From positions 124,001 through 188,000 of the forward strand of contig PGYR01000001.1 in assembly GCA_002839765.1 (NCBI GenBank): DNA of 64,000 nucleotides, read 5' to 3'. Positions 36,808 to 44,383 of the stretch are shown in pieces. The DNA is from Ignavibacteriae bacterium HGW-Ignavibacteriae-4. Lineage in GTDB: Bacteria; Bacteroidota; Ignavibacteria; Kapaibacteriales; UBA2268. Each line of letters opens with the position of its first letter. The stretch's first letter is position 1. The notes under the pieces were generated by a model. That model made no database searches, had not been told where the DNA came from, and worked only from the letters and a program-made list of their open reading frames with translations. A program made the position numbers and the translations under genes.

Positions 36808-37305
36808 TTATTTAAAAAAATGCTTTATCGGTTCTTCATTTTTAATGTATTTAGTCTTTACCCAAACATTATCTTTGAAATCTAAGTTTAATAAATAATA
36901 GTAATCAATAGATTTTTTTCTTTGAAGTAATACAATTGATGCGGCAATTAAATTTTCGTCATCAACATAAATATTTAAATCACTAATCATAATACTATTC
37001 TCATAATCATCCTTCATTTGATCAATTGGAACAAGTCGATTAATAGTCACAAATTTAGAATCAATTTGTTCATCTAAAATATAAGTATAATAAGGATATA
37101 CATATAATTTAGTATAATCAGAGCAATCTATATCACCATTTTCTTCTAAAATACTTAATATTTCATTTAAAATTTCAATTTTTATCTTATTTACTTCTTT
37201 TACAGATTCAATTCTATTTGGTAATCTGTAACAAGAAGTTATAATAAATAATAGAAACAGAGATATTATTATTCGATATGCTATATTAATAGAGTTCTTA
37301 ATCAT
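36808..37305 (-). CDS. Hypothetical lipoprotein (165 residues)
   Basis: Hydrophobic N-terminus (YRIIISLFLLFIITSC) with a lipobox ending at Cys25. The mature part is helical at first (EVNKIKIEILNEILSILEE), then beta-rich (NLIAASIVLLQRKKSIDYYYLLNLDF), a pattern that would fit a small NTF2- or cystatin-like fold, although that is a guess. It begins nine bases after the IgGFc-domain gene ends and is on the same strand, so the two are likely co-transcribed. No family recognised. Confidence 0.7.
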   Translation of the reverse strand: MIKNSINIAYRIIISLFLLFIITSCYRLPNRIESVKEVNKIKIEILNEILSILEENGDIDCSDYTKLYVYPYYTYILDEQIDSKFVTINRLVPIDQMKDDYENSIMISDLNIYVDDENLIAASIVLLQRKKSIDYYYLLNLDFKDNVWVKTKYIKNEEPIKHFFK

Positions 37306-37314
37306 AATTATCTT

Positions 37315-40161
37315 CTACCTCACCACACTAATCTTCTTTGATAACAGCTGTGTGGTACTTTTCAGGGTTACTATATAAGTTCCAGTTATTAATTTGGTAA
37401 GTGAGATTGTATTTTGCTCGTCAGTTGCAATGCTGATTAACTTTGTACCTTCTAGTGTGTAGATAGATAGGTCATAGAAGCCGTCCTTTAGTACTTTTGG
37501 TAGTAATTCAATACTTGATCCCGTTACATACATATATTGTGCTAATACTTTATCAGAGGCTACTGATGATTCTGGGTCTTTGGCTTTGATTGTTGTTTTG
37601 TGTTCAGTTTTATATGTGAATGAGACTTCTTCTAACTCATTGTTTTTGTCATATTCTTGTATGCCAATACCTAATGAATCAACTAATATTTGTTCATCTT
37701 TTATTTGAGGATACAACTTCGGATTAAATACAATATCTACTATAACTTCACTCTCTGGTTTAATTGGTTTGTTTATATTCCAATCAAATGGACTGATAGA
37801 ACCTATACTGAATCCTTTGTCTTTTTCTTTCAGTTCTATTCTTGATAAATACAAATCTGTTTTGGTTGATAGGTTACGTATTGTGTCTTGCAACTTGATT
37901 GACTTAGAATTATCATCAAAAGTACCGAAGTCATGCTTTTGAGTAGCAAATAACTGAGGGTATAGAGTGCTAACAGATACCTCAGAGAATGGTTTGAATT
38001 CACACTCAGTGATTTGATTACCTTTGTTTACTCCCAATCCTATATAAACAGAGTCTTTGTATGTTTGGTTGTCTTCTATATTATCATCTTTGAAAGTATA
38101 GTTTATATATCTTACTTGGTTAGGTGGAATTGGTGTTCCAGGAGTCCAGCCAATTGGTTCATACGAATCAATTTTAAATTTAGAATTAGTATTCGCTACT
38201 TCTAATCTAGTTATATAAAGTGATTGGTATGAAGACAAGTTTCTAATAGTGTCTTGGAATGCTATAGTTTTGAAATTTGGATTTCTTATTTCATTATAAG
38301 TGGTTTTAATTACCAATTCTGCTTTTGGTTCAGATTCGATGAAAATAGTAGTATCATTACCTGCCTTATCTACAAAGTAAAGTAATGCAGAAGCTGGTAG
38401 ATTCTTTTTTATCTTCTCTAATGACCATTTTAGTGTTTGATTTCTTCCAGGAATGAACTCGCCTGATTCTGTTTCCCATTTGAACTCATAGTTTTCGCCT
38501 GCCATCATATAAGCATCAGCTATATTGGAGCGGGTTTCTTCATTCATAGGCATATCTGTTACTGTTGCTGTATTCAGATTGATATTTCCATCACAATCTT
38601 GTTCGTAATATACAACAGGAGGTAAAGAATCTCCCAAAGTTCTATCATAGACAGAAAATGCAGTTGGTAATCCATAGCCTGCATTCATATCTGTTCCGTA
38701 AGAATAAGCTACAAACTTACTATATTTAGACTTTATATGATAAACTCTATTTCGTTTTATTTCATAAGTAATACTTCCATATTCTTTACCATTATAATCT
38801 TCATCAAATAAATTAAGCTCAATTTCTTGATCTTCATAAGGTTTTACGATTTCTATTAATGAACCCAATGAATCAAACTTAAATAATTCTAAATCCTTTG
38901 GTATAGAACCATTTTCAAGTGGGAAAGTCAAAGCTATATTATTAACATAAAAAGTCGGTGAACCTTCTGTATGCTTGTAAGGAGCGGAGTATATTGCAGA
39001 AGTTACTCCTTGTTCAATACAAGGAACTTGAAATATTAAAGGTTCATTATCATAAATTCCAATTACTTTGTGACCTTCATAAGTATTATAATATGTAACT
39101 GAAATGGGTTTGTCAGAAGATATAACAGAAGGTTTAATGGAATTATTCTTTCCTGAAGGAATTTCAATATATGCTTCTCCAAAATCAGCACCTCCACCTT
39201 TTTTAATATTTCCAACAAATTCACCTTCTAGAAATACATTAGTATTATCTTCAGATGCAGAAATTCTAAAGTAAGAACCTTTATTTCTTCTAATTAAAGG
39301 AGTAAAAAAGAATTTCTTCCCCCATATTTTTGTAGGAAACTCCATTTGAGTTATATAATCAAATGATCCAGTATCCAACGGCATATAAGTTTCATTTACA
39401 CCAGATACAATCGAAATTGGTTTGTCTGATTCTATAAGACTTCCTGATAAATCTTGCAGATTGCCACTAGATCCTAATAGTAAGACATCCCCACTATTCA
39501 TTACTTTAGTAGTTGATTCCCCTGTTTTAATAGATTTTCCATCCTTAAATTTTACTTCATCGTTTGCCAATCTACCACCCCCTAAAACTAAATTAATGTT
39601 TGTGTTATCATAATGTGATACAATAGCCGTATAAGAGGGGATTAGTCCATTAGAAAACTTGCTTGAAAAGTAGGTCATATTTATATACTTTTCAGATGAC
39701 CCAATAGTTGGGATTGCATAATACCCATCTGAGTTTTCATGATGTTTAAGAAAAACATATACTACAATAGGGAACTCAGATTTGATATGAAGTGCCATAT
39801 CCTTATAAAGATCAGAGGGTTTGGGGTTTTCAAAATCATCTGAAGTTGGTTCAATATAAATATTATCTATTTCTAAAAGTGTAACTATATTAGGCAAAAC
39901 CTCTATTGTATTCTTATAATTACTACCCTTTATATTAATATCAACTTTTGTCCGCACTGAACTAAATAAATATATTTTTCTTTTAGGTATATCAAACTTA
40001 AAAATACTCCTAGGAGTAACAGTCAGCCAAAACTCCCTCCCTGCGTTACCAGAGTTCTGCATAACCTCAAAATCAGATTTCACTTTCTCTACATCTATTT
40101 TTGAGTATGCAAAAATAGGGGTAAAGAGTAGTATTAGGCAAATTGTATTTAGTGTTTTCAA
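37315..40161 (-). CDS. Exported IgGFc-binding-domain protein with type IX sorting domain
   Basis: 948 residues. A signal peptide (MKTLNTICLILLFTPIFAYS) is followed by an IgGFc-binding-like N-terminal domain (about 35-500: NAGREFWLTVTP, PIVVYVFLKHHENSDGYYAIP, GSSEKYINM, ISGVNETYMP, WGKKFFFTPL, ISVTYYNT). Two ASH-like beta repeats come next (about 640-860) and a C-terminal type IX sorting-like domain (GTYIVTLKSTTQLLSKKISVVR). Predicted to be surface-exposed. The start is TTG at 40161, which overlaps the upstream lipoprotein stop by four bases (TTGA). The first 45 codons recur, nearly identical, at 41789-41923. Confidence 0.82.
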   Translation of the reverse strand: MKTLNTICLILLFTPIFAYSKIDVEKVKSDFEVMQNSGNAGREFWLTVTPRSIFKFDIPKRKIYLFSSVRTKVDINIKGSNYKNTIEVLPNIVTLLEIDNIYIEPTSDDFENPKPSDLYKDMALHIKSEFPIVVYVFLKHHENSDGYYAIPTIGSSEKYINMTYFSSKFSNGLIPSYTAIVSHYDNTNINLVLGGGRLANDEVKFKDGKSIKTGESTTKVMNSGDVLLLGSSGNLQDLSGSLIESDKPISIVSGVNETYMPLDTGSFDYITQMEFPTKIWGKKFFFTPLIRRNKGSYFRISASEDNTNVFLEGEFVGNIKKGGGADFGEAYIEIPSGKNNSIKPSVISSDKPISVTYYNTYEGHKVIGIYDNEPLIFQVPCIEQGVTSAIYSAPYKHTEGSPTFYVNNIALTFPLENGSIPKDLELFKFDSLGSLIEIVKPYEDQEIELNLFDEDYNGKEYGSITYEIKRNRVYHIKSKYSKFVAYSYGTDMNAGYGLPTAFSVYDRTLGDSLPPVVYYEQDCDGNINLNTATVTDMPMNEETRSNIADAYMMAGENYEFKWETESGEFIPGRNQTLKWSLEKIKKNLPASALLYFVDKAGNDTTIFIESEPKAELVIKTTYNEIRNPNFKTIAFQDTIRNLSSYQSLYITRLEVANTNSKFKIDSYEPIGWTPGTPIPPNQVRYINYTFKDDNIEDNQTYKDSVYIGLGVNKGNQITECEFKPFSEVSVSTLYPQLFATQKHDFGTFDDNSKSIKLQDTIRNLSTKTDLYLSRIELKEKDKGFSIGSISPFDWNINKPIKPESEVIVDIVFNPKLYPQIKDEQILVDSLGIGIQEYDKNNELEEVSFTYKTEHKTTIKAKDPESSVASDKVLAQYMYVTGSSIELLPKVLKDGFYDLSIYTLEGTKLISIATDEQNTISLTKLITGTYIVTLKSTTQLLSKKISVVR

Positions 40162-40784: not shown

Positions 40785-41792
40785 TTATTTCCTCAAGTTC
40801 TCTTCTGTAGCCTTAACACCTAGTCTAAAAGCTTCTTCTGATAAATTATTTGTCTTATCTTTTGCATAGAAAGACCCTTCAGTTTGAAAAGTTTCTTTAT
40901 CGTAATTTTTACCATTTTGTTTGTCATGACTAACATTATCTCCACTTTCACTTGGGTGGTTAGTAGTTCTAATCTTGCTTAGAACGTGCTCATAATCAGA
41001 TGAACCTGGTTTTAAGCTTTCGAAAATTGGTACTTCACCTACTTTATAATCTAAATCATACATCATAATTTCAATATAGTTAGAATGATAATAAAAATCT
41101 TGATCTTGATGGTTATCCCAATTTTTATACTCACCATTTCTAAGCATTGGTGCCAATTCTTCATTTGACAAGTTATCTAAATGAGCCATATTATCATAAA
41201 AAGGTCCGGCTCCTAAAACAGTTTCAATAAACAATTGACTTATTAAACTAAATAAATCAGGTTCTCCGTGTACATTAAAATGAGCAATTTGATCCATCAG
41301 TATATGATCTGTAATAAAAGCTTTCCCATTAACATCAACATTATTTATTGGGTTATTAGCACTATACTGATACGGAGTCCAGCCATAATAACTTGTCCAC
41401 AGCGGGTCTATACTTATAAACCTACCCGTCTCGTATTCGTATTTTCTCACTCCGTGGTCTCCTAGCTTCGATTCGTTATCTTTTTCTTTACCTACCCAGT
41501 TTTGTAGGGTGCTTTCTGTTTCAGTTAGGTTACTATTCGTCCATCTCTCCCCACCGTAAGGGTTGTGAGTTTGCATAGATGTTGGTGTTATCCCAAATAT
41601 ACCTACTTTTTTATATGTCTGTACTAATGTTCCCAAATGGTCATATATGTTAAAGTGCTTTTTCCACGAAGAAGAAGCCCTATCATACTTGTAACTAACC
41701 TGCGGTGATAGTCCACTACCAAATACGTTTAGTTGAGCAGGGTAAATCATAATCTGTTCACTTTTTGATGGATAGGGATAGTAGAAGCCCAA
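40785..41792 (-). CDS. Orphan Rhs core tip with Het-C/phospholipase-C-like C-terminus (5' truncated)
   Basis: 335 residues. Residues 45-156 are the end of an Rhs/YD-repeat core: YDHLGTLVQTY, GVRKYEYETGRFISIDPLW, YGWTPYQYSANNPINNVDVNG. Residues 157-335 form a variable tip with MAHLDNL (202-208), NHQDQDFYYHSNYIE (227-241), SHDKQN (288-293) and an alpha-helical end with Ala and Thr spacing. This resembles the Het-C/zinc-phospholipase-C-like fold, where QDFYxHSNWVE and HDxLNKD hold metal ligands. The bulk of an Rhs protein is missing. There is no natural start: TTG at 41792 lies at a junction with a duplicated leader, and ATG at 41750 overlaps that leader's stop (ATGA). See the leader entry. Confidence 0.7.
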   Translation of the reverse strand: MGFYYPYPSKSEQIMIYPAQLNVFGSGLSPQVSYKYDRASSSWKKHFNIYDHLGTLVQTYKKVGIFGITPTSMQTHNPYGGERWTNSNLTETESTLQNWVGKEKDNESKLGDHGVRKYEYETGRFISIDPLWTSYYGWTPYQYSANNPINNVDVNGKAFITDHILMDQIAHFNVHGEPDLFSLISQLFIETVLGAGPFYDNMAHLDNLSNEELAPMLRNGEYKNWDNHQDQDFYYHSNYIEIMMYDLDYKVGEVPIFESLKPGSSDYEHVLSKIRTTNHPSESGDNVSHDKQNGKNYDKETFQTEGSFYAKDKTNNLSEEAFRLGVKATEENLRK

Positions 41793-41923
41793 AACTCCCT
41801 CCCAGCGTTACCAGAGTTCTGCATAACCTCAAAATCGGATTTTACTTTCTCTACATCAATTTTTGAGTATGTAAGAATAGGGGTGAGAAGTAGAATTAAA
41901 AAAAATGTTTGTAGTGTTTTCAT
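41747..41923 (-). pseudogene. Duplicated leader of the IgGFc-domain gene, joined to the Rhs tip
   Basis: ATG at 41923 to TGA at 41747 gives 58 residues. The first 45 repeat the start of the gene at 40161 (39 of 45 identical, the last 27 all identical, ending SGNAGREFW). After Trp45 the similarity stops and the sequence becomes Rhs sequence read in the wrong frame (ASTIPIHQKVNRL, stop). One extra G in the run at the junction (TTTTGGG) would join leader and Rhs tip into a single frame of about 379 codons. So this is either a broken fusion, a sequencing error, or a short leader gene coupled through ATGA to the Rhs frame. Confidence 0.75.
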
Positions 41924-41935
41924 AGTATAATTGAT

Positions 41936-42415
41936 TTATTTGCATTCTTTAAAATAAAGAGGTTCATAAAGTTCATTCTTTTGAATCGATACAAGAATAA
42001 TTTGATCTTCAATTATTCTAATATAAATCTCTACTAAAAAAAAAAGATCCTGTTCTTTCAATTCTATATCAACAGAGGTGAACAAAGTAGGAGATTCTTC
42101 AATTCTAATTGATCTTAATACAAATGCATTTTTACTAAACCCTAAAGATAATAAGTTGGGGTAACTATTTACAATGACTAAATTGTTCCTTTCTAAGTAA
42201 TCAATATTTCTATTAACAAAGAGTGGGACTGAATAGAAAGTATACTTTATATTCGTATCTATTAGACTATGACTTATTAAACTATTTACAGAATAATTTA
42301 GAATTCTTTCTTCAAGTTTTTTATAAAGATTTACTGACTCAATAGTTTTACTACTACTACATGAAATAATAGCAAATAAAAGTAAACCTAGTAATATTTT
42401 ACTCCTTATTTTCAA
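41936..42415 (-). CDS. Hypothetical lipoprotein (159 residues)
   Basis: Signal KIRSKILLGLLLFAIISC with lipobox Cys19, then SSSK. The mature part is a mix of helix (LYKKLEERILNYSVNSLIS) and strands (FFLVEIYIRIIEDQIILVSIQ). No family recognised. The start is TTG at 42415, inside the last codons of the biotin-carrier gene (17-base overlap), which suggests readthrough expression from the carboxylase operon. It is followed after 12 bases by the duplicated leader. Confidence 0.65.
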   Translation of the reverse strand: MKIRSKILLGLLLFAIISCSSSKTIESVNLYKKLEERILNYSVNSLISHSLIDTNIKYTFYSVPLFVNRNIDYLERNNLVIVNSYPNLLSLGFSKNAFVLRSIRIEESPTLFTSVDIELKEQDLFFLVEIYIRIIEDQIILVSIQKNELYEPLYFKECK

Positions 42416-42908
42416 CTTCTTCCTTCTCTATCACAACTAATACAGTGTCTGAGTCAACTCTATCACCTTCTTTTGCGTTCACTTTGGTTACTTTTCCAGT
42501 TATTCGAGTGTAGAGGTTAGTCTCCATTTTCATTGCTTCGACTACTATTACGGCATCGCCCTCATTTACTTTGTCACCCACTGCTACGTTAACTTTTATA
42601 ATTGTCCCCGGCATCGGTGGCACTATGTTTTCTATATCTTCGGATTCGCCTACACCTGCTATCACATCTTCTTCATCTTCTACTTTTCCGAATATATATT
42701 GCTTACCATCTATTTGCACATAATATTTATCTCTGTCTTCTATATATACAGCTTCCTTTATCTCATTATTGTATAATAGTTTTACAATGTTTTCTTCAGA
42801 AGATAGAATAGTGACTTTTAACTCATCATCATTAACCCGACCTATTAGATTGCCGTTCATTTGCTTAGCATCAACTTCTATTATTTCGTTGTTTCTTTTC
42901 AGTTTCAT
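42399..42908 (-). CDS. Biotin carboxyl carrier subunit of acyl-CoA carboxylase
   Basis: 169 residues from ATG at 42908, which overlaps the biotin carboxylase stop as ATGA; a longer start at 42929 would lie inside that gene. The C-terminal biotinyl domain contains VVEAMKMETNLY with the biotinylated lysine, preceded by the hinge PPMPGTIIKVNVAVGDKVNEGD. The N-terminal 80 residues are the linker/BT-like part. With the biotin carboxylase and the carboxyltransferase at 46828 it most likely forms methylcrotonyl-CoA carboxylase of leucine breakdown. Confidence 0.9.
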   Translation of the reverse strand: MKLKRNNEIIEVDAKQMNGNLIGRVNDDELKVTILSSEENIVKLLYNNEIKEAVYIEDRDKYYVQIDGKQYIFGKVEDEEDVIAGVGESEDIENIVPPMPGTIIKVNVAVGDKVNEGDAVIVVEAMKMETNLYTRITGKVTKVNAKEGDRVDSDTVLVVIEKEEVENKE

Positions 42909-44383
42909 TTTGTTGCTCCTATTTCCCATTCACCTATTATCTGCCAAGGTAGGGGAGTGTCTTCGTTTTCAGTTTCTTGTTTGTGATTTATCATTGTAGT
43001 AATTAATGCCGCTAATTCAGAATTATCACATTTATCTTCAAATACTTCGGGGTTCTTATCTAAGAAGTTAGTATGAGTATTTCCAGCTATGAAATTCTCA
43101 TTGCAAAGCACTCTATACATAAAGTCCATTGAAGTTTTCACTCCCAATATCACGGTTTCTTTCAGTGCCAGTTTCATTCTTTCTATTGCTTCTTCTCGCG
43201 TGCTACCATAGCTGATTATCTTGCTCATTATCGGGTCATAGTAAGGCGAAATTTCAGAGCCGGTAGTAATACCAGTATCATATCGTATTCCCAAGCCAGT
43301 AGGGGGGCGGTGATACAGGACTTTTCCACCAGTGGGTATAAAGTCTTTTTCTGCATCTTCAGCGTAAACTCTGCACTCTATAGAATGTCCTCGCTGAGTT
43401 ATATCAGATTGTTTGTATGGCATTTCTTTTCCATTTGCAATGTCAATTTGTAATTTGAGTAGATCAATTCCTGTAGTCATTTCAGTGATTGGGTGTTCTA
43501 CTTGGATTCTTGTATTTACTTCTAGAAAATAGAACTTACCGTCATCATCTAAGAGAAATTCTACTGTACCAACACTATCATAATTCACAGCTCTGATTGC
43601 TTCCACGGCTGCTGCACCCATTGTTTTTCTTAGCTCTTCAGTCAGTGCAGTCGAAGGAGTTTCTTCTATTACTTTTTGATGTCTTCTTTGGATTGAGCAC
43701 TCACGTTCGTATAGATGGATATAATTGTTATGACTATCGCCAGCAACTTGGAATTCTATATGACGAGGGTTTTCCACATACTTCTCCACAAAGACTGTGG
43801 CATCACCAAAAGCACTCTTTGCCTCACGTGATGAGGCGTTGAAAGCATCTTCGAACTCATCGGCAGAGCGAACTATACGCATACCTTTTCCACCACCACC
43901 GGCTGAAGCTTTTACTAATACGGGGAAGCCAATTTCAATTGCTTTAGATTTGAATTCATCTATACTTGCAGTATCACTTTGGAAGCCGTTTATAACGGGA
44001 ACACCAGCGTCAATCATCGTTTGTCGTGATGAAGTCTTGGAACCCAACAGCTTCATTGCTTCTACATTCGGAGCTATGTAAGTCAGTCCAGCGTCTCGCA
44101 CTTTCTGGTTGAATTCATAGTTTTCCGAAAGAAAGCCATATCCAGGGTGGATAGCATCAGCTCCCATTTTTAAGGCCGTCTCTATTAGGATCTCTTGATT
44201 CAGATAAGACTGATTAGCTGGAGCTGGGCCGATTAAGTCCGATTCATCAGCAAGTTTTACATGTAATGCTTCTTTATCTATTTCCGAATAAACCGCTACG
44301 GTTTTTATTCCCATTTCTTTCGCTGCTCTAATTATTCGGCAAGCAATCTCTGAACGATTTGCTATAAGTATCTTTTTTATCAT
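42905..44383 (-). CDS. Biotin carboxylase subunit of acyl-CoA (probably methylcrotonyl-CoA) carboxylase
   Basis: 492 residues from ATG at 44383 (MIKKILIANRSEIACRII); an upstream in-frame TTG at 44404 lies inside the hydratase gene and is less likely. ATP-grasp features: VKASAGGGGKGMRIV, EKYVENPRHIEFQV, ERECSIQRRHQKVIEE and FLEVNTRIQVEHPITEM. It carboxylates biotin on the carrier subunit using ATP and bicarbonate. The fatty-acid enzyme AccC is the main alternative, but the LiuC-like hydratase eight bases upstream and the MccB-type transferase 2.4 kb away favour leucine catabolism. Confidence 0.9.
   Translation of the reverse strand: MIKKILIANRSEIACRIIRAAKEMGIKTVAVYSEIDKEALHVKLADESDLIGPAPANQSYLNQEILIETALKMGADAIHPGYGFLSENYEFNQKVRDAGLTYIAPNVEAMKLLGSKTSSRQTMIDAGVPVINGFQSDTASIDEFKSKAIEIGFPVLVKASAGGGGKGMRIVRSADEFEDAFNASSREAKSAFGDATVFVEKYVENPRHIEFQVAGDSHNNYIHLYERECSIQRRHQKVIEETPSTALTEELRKTMGAAAVEAIRAVNYDSVGTVEFLLDDDGKFYFLEVNTRIQVEHPITEMTTGIDLLKLQIDIANGKEMPYKQSDITQRGHSIECRVYAEDAEKDFIPTGGKVLYHRPPTGLGIRYDTGITTGSEISPYYDPIMSKIISYGSTREEAIERMKLALKETVILGVKTSMDFMYRVLCNENFIAGNTHTNFLDKNPEVFEDKCDNSELAALITTMINHKQETENEDTPLPWQIIGEWEIGATK

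What the first reader, a model, noticed from the sequence alone, without database searches (positions are those of the whole stretch)
41747..41923. Leader of the IgGFc gene duplicated in front of the Rhs tip, one base out of frame
Codons 1-45 at 40161-40027 and 41923-41789 are near copies (27 identical residues at the end), and the similarity stops sharply at TTTTGG. A single extra G at the junction would give one frame of about 379 codons: signal peptide plus Rhs tip. As written, the leader stop and an Rhs-frame ATG overlap as ATGA, which would allow coupled translation. Either way a recombination event moved an export leader onto a toxin tip.
Basis: seen in the sequence. Interest (0 to 1): 0.68.

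Follow-up and report, generated by a model that had tools for sequence, protein, structure and literature searches.

The report
Stranded signal leader beside toxin gene
A short copy of a surface-protein gene's start lies in front of a bacterial toxin-tip gene; comparison with sister species suggests that it is a leftover of gene shuffling at a variable site rather than an export signal fused to the toxin, and that the toxin gene has its own start.

Summary
In detail: a 135-base leader copy (118/135 identical) sits in front of an Rhs tip, one base out of register, with an ATGA stop/start overlap. The export-fusion reading is not supported. In a same-genus genome (G041) the same locus carries the same truncated Rhs core, starting at the same ATG, with no leader: there the ATGA overlap is with the biotin-carrier gene. 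The core is under purifying selection between the two (146 codons; dN/dS 0.06-0.12; dS like neighbouring genes), so the ATG frame looks like the real gene. Its toxin end and immunity gene have been swapped. A second relative (G043) has no tip but also keeps a stranded leader stump before its IgGFc gene. The IgGFc genes are mosaics that switch similarity at the leader/body edge (codon 47), two codons from where the window's leader copy stops. Most likely this is an orphan Rhs tip/immunity pair in a variable site between a carboxylase operon and a T9SS-type IgGFc gene; the leader is a remnant of an IgGFc 5' end, left by recombination at a repeatedly used breakpoint. The tip resembles Tox-HET-C by motif. 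Orphan Rhs tips are known; the stop-start-coupled housekeeping-operon setting is a variant.

The parts
41789..41923 (-). leader copy 1 (stranded): signal-peptide-like start plus 25 codons of an IgGFc 5' end
   Evidence: 118/135 identical to copy 2; only two copies in the genome
41747..41923 (-). 58-codon ORF holding leader copy 1, running on through 13 codons of Rhs-derived DNA in another frame to TGA
41747..41750 (-). ATGA: stop of the leader ORF overlapping the start of the tip ORF
   Evidence: sequence; same ATG and same overlap with a different upstream gene in G041
40785..41750 (-). orphan Rhs tip gene (321 codons from ATG; open from TTG 41792), core plus toxin end
   Evidence: TIGR03696 8e-14; purifying selection on the core
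40785..41315 (-). C-terminal toxin end, Tox-HET-C-like by motif (HxD, HxxxDxxxH, NxxE)
   Evidence: 37-38% identical homologue in a longer Rhs ORF of G154; motif list from PMC3482391
40158..40784 (-). 208-aa lipoprotein-like gene, probable immunity partner, abutting the tip stop
   Evidence: 0-base gap; G154 has a 210-aa lipoprotein-like gene in the same place; weak similarity
40027..40161 (-). leader copy 2, start of the intact IgGFc gene (TTG)
37315..40161 (-). IgGFc-binding-type surface protein, 948 aa, with weak T9SS sorting domain
   Evidence: PF17517 1.3e-31; TIGR04183 21.4 bits, below cut-off; mosaic with G041/G043
41936..42415 (-). 159-aa lipoprotein-like gene overlapping the BCCP end; interrupted remnant of a look-alike at the same place in G043
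42399..42929 (-). biotin carboxyl carrier gene, conserved left border of the variable site
36808..37305 (-). 165-aa lipoprotein-like gene after IgGFc

Best explanation
The locus between the biotin-carrier gene and the IgGFc gene is a variable cargo site. In the window it holds an orphan Rhs tip with its immunity gene. The tip is a gene of its own, translated from the ATG at 41750, probably by re-initiation after the upstream stop in the tightly packed operon. The leader copy in front of it is the stranded 5' end of an IgGFc gene. It was left when recombination broke an IgGFc gene (a tandem paralogue or the resident one) at the leader/body edge and tip-immunity DNA came to lie behind it. It does not export the tip. 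Shown: the repeat, synteny, same start in a sister species, selection on the core, swapped tips, a stump in G043, mosaic IgGFc genes. Inferred: translation by coupling, which paralogue left the stump, the order of events, toxin activity.
For: Same-genus G041 has BCCP - Rhs core (90-92% aa) from the same ATG with ATGA on the BCCP stop - new toxin end - new partner gene - IgGFc - aldehyde dehydrogenase, no leader before the tip. Core NG86 dN 0.073, dS 0.610 (YN00 dN/dS 0.059) against dS 0.72-0.83 for three neighbours; two others are higher, 1.5 and 2.0. G043 has a 54-codon stranded leader before an intact IgGFc and no tip. IgGFc mosaic: window matches G041 at 30 of 34 informative sites in codons 1-45 and G043 at 303 of 433 in codons 46-500, P = 2e-11, best break at nt 141. 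The tip has a homologue followed by a lipoprotein-like gene in G154.
Against: Only two relatives carry the locus, both draft bins, and no reads were seen. The window's genome holds, in frame, a signal-peptide-like start fused to another Rhs end (G000 C74), so leader-plus-tip proteins are real in this organism. The last 25 codons of the stranded leader differ from copy 2 by four changes, all synonymous, as if it were a live coding sequence until recently or still is. The mosaic pattern can also be explained by changes in G041 and G043 rather than in the window. The core could have come in twice from similar donors.
Confidence: 0.64

Rival explanations
1. A leader-to-tip fusion that gave an exported mini-Rhs toxin and has since gone out of frame, or is read across by frameshifting or only looks broken through an assembly error.
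For: Leader placed directly before the tip with good similarity; an in-frame signal-peptide-like start plus Rhs end, 339 aa with an overlapping lipoprotein-like gene, exists at C74 of the same genome.
Against: G041 keeps the same core under selection without a leader; the leader ORF ends in the same ATGA as BCCP in G041; no canonical slippery heptamer seen by eye at the junction; G043's stump has no toxin behind it.
Confidence: 0.16
2. The tip is a decaying pseudogene and the leader a dead fragment: a displaced, silent tip.
For: Orphan tips usually lack initiation signals and can degenerate (passages of PMC2935791, PMC3150448, PMC3967940).
Against: 335 open codons, dN/dS 0.06-0.12 in the core, a start codon kept in two species, intact partner gene abutting the tip.
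Confidence: 0.12
3. The stranded leader is itself a functional short secreted peptide conserved in the genus.
For: Open short ORFs of 58 and 54 codons in two species; four of four changes synonymous in its last 25 codons against copy 2.
Against: Absent from G041 (one match only, its IgGFc gene); window copy 1 and G043 copy 1 differ at 9 of 45 residues; different C-terminal ends.
Confidence: 0.06

Closest known systems
Orphan (dissociated) rhs-CT/rhsI modules of enterobacteria (PMC2935791, PMC3150448, PMC3967940; passages read)
   Same: Truncated Rhs core plus variable toxin end plus immunity gene; core conserved while ends are swapped at the core boundary.
   Different: Those lie downstream of a full rhs gene and mostly lack a start codon; here the module lies alone in a housekeeping operon with an ATG overlapping an upstream stop, and 5 of 5 Rhs-core frames found in this draft genome are 527 codons or shorter.
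Tox-HET-C toxin domain (PMC3482391; passages read)
   Same: HxD, HxxxDxxxH and Nxx[DE] motifs in the toxin end and in its G154 homologue.
   Different: No HET-C match in Pfam and no PDB profile match; fold prediction failed (pLDDT 29).
IgGFc_binding (PF17517) proteins with T9SS sorting domain
   Same: Domain above cut-off, C-terminal sorting domain, also present in tandem pairs and triples in the genus.
   Different: Sorting domain scores just below cut-off in the window protein.

Membership tests
Rhs tip / polymorphic toxin module | Rhs-associated core domain | tested here: met
   TIGR03696 51.9 bits, cut-off 32.5
Rhs tip / polymorphic toxin module | C-terminal end exchanged while the core is kept | tested here: met
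   G041 shares the core, unrelated end and unrelated partner gene
Rhs tip / polymorphic toxin module | Immunity gene directly downstream | tested here: inconclusive
   Abutting lipoprotein-like gene in window and G154; weak similarity, 4 of 500 shuffles reach the score; activity not tested
Rhs tip / polymorphic toxin module | Toxic, and neutralised by the partner | not testable with these tools
   needs a bench test
Orphan rhs-CT module | Lacks the Rhs shell | tested here: met
   ORF of 321-335 codons. RHS_repeat PF05593 gave no match in 4 of 4 genus genomes, but that search also missed a 1365-codon Rhs frame in G043, so it is a weak test
Orphan rhs-CT module | Adjacent to a full-length rhs gene | tested here: not met
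   BCCP and IgGFc genes flank it; longest Rhs-core frame in the draft genome is 527 codons
Tox-HET-C | Motif set HxD, HxxxDxxxH, Nxx[DE] | tested here: met
   read in alignment A2, 2 of 2 sequences
Tox-HET-C | Profile or fold match | tested here: not met
   No HET-C hit in Pfam, no PDB hit; model too poor to compare
T9SS cargo (IgGFc protein) | C-terminal sorting domain | tested here: inconclusive
   21.4 bits against 23 (NCBIfam) and 21.7 against 27 (Pfam)
Exported leader-tip fusion | One continuous reading frame from leader to tip | tested here: not met
   frames differ by one base

The most novel reading that the evidence does not exclude
The conserved 45-codon IgGFc leader works as a standing homology arm: recombination at its 3' edge both swaps adhesin bodies and lets toxin-immunity cassettes land behind it, in an operon where any cassette that starts with a stop-overlapping ATG is expressed at once by re-initiation, without a shell or export signal of its own.
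Probability: 0.2. Interest if true: 0.58.

Novelty: new variant of a known kind. Interest (0 to 1): 0.36.

Why it matters
Orphan Rhs tips are usually seen as silent spares beside a full rhs gene. Here a shell-less tip sits in a carboxylase operon, keeps its start and core under selection in two species, and still exchanges its toxin end. If it is translated, it asks what a cytoplasmic, shell-less toxin with an immunity partner is for: addiction, reservoir or immunity keeping. The leader breakpoint also gives a concrete place to test how adhesin and toxin genes are shuffled in Ignavibacteria-like bacteria.

Tried and rejected
Programmed frameshifting: no canonical slippery heptamer at the junction by eye; not modelled further.

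Fold of the tip: the single-sequence AlphaFold2 model has pLDDT 29 and is useless, so no fold search was run. A profile of the two tip homologues found nothing in the PDB.

Pfam hits SNaCT14 (E 0.005-0.017) and VWA7_N (0.011 in the G154 protein) are below their cut-offs and were not used.

Window-side mosaic as the only reading: G041 and G043 are closest to each other in BCCP (95.8% nt against 83% to the window), so the same pattern arises if G041 changed its body and G043 its leader. I therefore do not claim that the window itself is the recombinant.

Literature: searches listed no paper on IgGFc leaders as breakpoints or on stop-start-coupled orphan Rhs tips. That covers only these five searches of one open-access library, judged by their listings.

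Full report
What is there. On the minus strand the window carries a tight run of genes: enoyl-CoA hydratase, biotin carboxylase, biotin carrier (BCCP), a 159-aa lipoprotein-like gene, the leader copy, the Rhs tip, a 208-aa lipoprotein-like gene, the IgGFc gene and a 165-aa lipoprotein-like gene. Gaps between neighbours, in bases, are 8, -25, -17, 12, -4, 0, -4 and 9. The two leader copies agree at 118 of 135 positions and are the only two in the genome. The window lies in a 3.36-Mb draft genome of 110 contigs. Two same-genus contigs have public names: an Ignavibacteriae bin (JAGQWJ010000029.1, same length as G041 C58) and an unnamed bacterial bin (JAUHXN010000205.1, same length as G043 C113). 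Names of the carboxylase-operon genes, and lipoprotein and signal-peptide calls, are by eye; no predictor was run on them.

Relatives. Searching 54 family genomes with the tip, 30 match, mainly through the core. The best is G041 at 92% over residues 15-160; the next by E-value is 47%. G041 is syntenic over the whole stretch. There the tip begins at the same ATG, overlaps the BCCP stop as ATGA, has a different toxin end and a different partner (an LRR protein), and has no leader before it. G043 has BCCP, an interrupted look-alike of the 159-aa gene, a 223-aa gene, a 54-codon stranded leader ending in a few foreign codons, and then an intact IgGFc gene with its own leader; it has no tip here. 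G042 has no close BCCP match (best 38%), so nothing is said about it. The junctions in the window and in G041 are therefore different, while the tip start is the same.

Selection. Between the window and G041 the 146 shared core codons differ at 13, 9 and 40 first, second and third positions: NG86 dN 0.073, dS 0.610; YN00 ratio 0.059. Five neighbour genes give NG86 dS 0.826 (BCCP), 0.730 (biotin carboxylase), 0.723 (aldehyde dehydrogenase), 2.020 (enoyl hydratase) and 1.509 (a phosphoesterase). So the core is about as old at this place as its neighbours, or a little younger, and is read in the ATG frame. Two separate entries from similar donors are not excluded.

Mosaic. Window and G041 IgGFc are 93% identical (nt) in the first 45 codons but 58-77% over codons 46-500. 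Window and G043 show 73% in the leader and 70-85% over the body. The last 450 codons are similar in all pairs. Informative sites: 30 for G041 against 4 for G043 in codons 1-45, and 130 against 303 in codons 46-500; Fisher P = 2e-11; best break nt 141, chosen from many tried. The window's stranded copy ends at nt 135, and G043's stump runs only a few codons further. Three breaks thus fall within about 20 bases. Because G041 and G043 are sisters by BCCP, which genome recombined is open.

The stranded leader. Copy 1 is 87.4% identical to copy 2, 82.2% to G041, 83.0% to G043 copy 1 and 74.1% to G043 copy 2. In its last 25 codons it differs from copy 2 by four changes, all synonymous; the rough chance of that is 0.001 if changes fell at random. 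This fits a piece that was part of a living IgGFc gene until fairly recently, or gene conversion. Tandem IgGFc genes occur elsewhere in the genus (G042 C15 three, G043 C154 two), which makes a paralogue stump plausible.

The tip. Its end (176 aa) has one homologue in 296 phylum genomes besides itself: G154, 37% over residues 3-172 (2 of 296 counting itself). That is the end of a 678-codon Rhs ORF followed, with a 4-base overlap, by a 210-aa lipoprotein-like gene. The two partner genes are only weakly alike (4 of 500 shuffles reach the global score; for an unrelated control pair 105 of 500). Conserved HLD, HxxxDxxxH and SNYxE match the motif list for Tox-HET-C in PMC3482391 (passages read); profile searches did not confirm this.

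Other Rhs ends in this genome. The Rhs core model finds five places, all in frames of 333-527 codons (three over the cut-off). Three of the five overlap the upstream ORF at their start: the window's (4 bases), C5 (1 base, after the stop of a gene with a T9SS-like end) and C74 (11 bases). C66 and C75 follow gaps of about 565 and 240 bases.

Conclusion. The best reading is a stranded IgGFc leader at a recurrent breakpoint next to an independently started, selected orphan Rhs tip with its partner. Enterobacterial orphan tips (PMC2935791, PMC3150448 and PMC3967940, passages read) are the nearest known kind; the operon setting and the start overlap are the differences.

Noticed in passing
L065, L066, L067, L068 (G041 contigs C124, C120, C115, C99): Strings of orphan Rhs tip plus partner cassettes; in 8 of 8 tip ORFs read the shared Rhs sequence starts sharply near a TATCC...GGGATGATGATG or similar YPFGMMM-coding boundary (one has a short insert there), with unrelated sequence before it, and tyrosine-recombinase-like ORFs lie directly upstream of a tip in L067 and L068. 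This may be a fixed-boundary cassette system.
   Followed up: partly
L112:2433-3452 (G000 C74): In-frame 339-aa ORF: signal-peptide-like start, short linker, end of an Rhs core and a toxin-like end, with an overlapping lipoprotein-like gene downstream.
   Followed up: partly
L046:2345-7965 (G000 C5) and L117 (G043 C254): Rhs tip starting in a TAATG overlap with the stop of a 1348-aa gene with a T9SS-like end; in G043 the same gene end is followed by other cargo.
   Followed up: partly
L101 and L102 (G042 C15, G043 C154): Tandem IgGFc genes with related leaders beside NADH dehydrogenase-like genes.
   Followed up: no
window 41770-41784: The first bases of the Rhs part, CTACTATCCCTATCC, resemble the TATCC.TATGG boundary of the G041 cassettes; too short to judge.
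   Followed up: no
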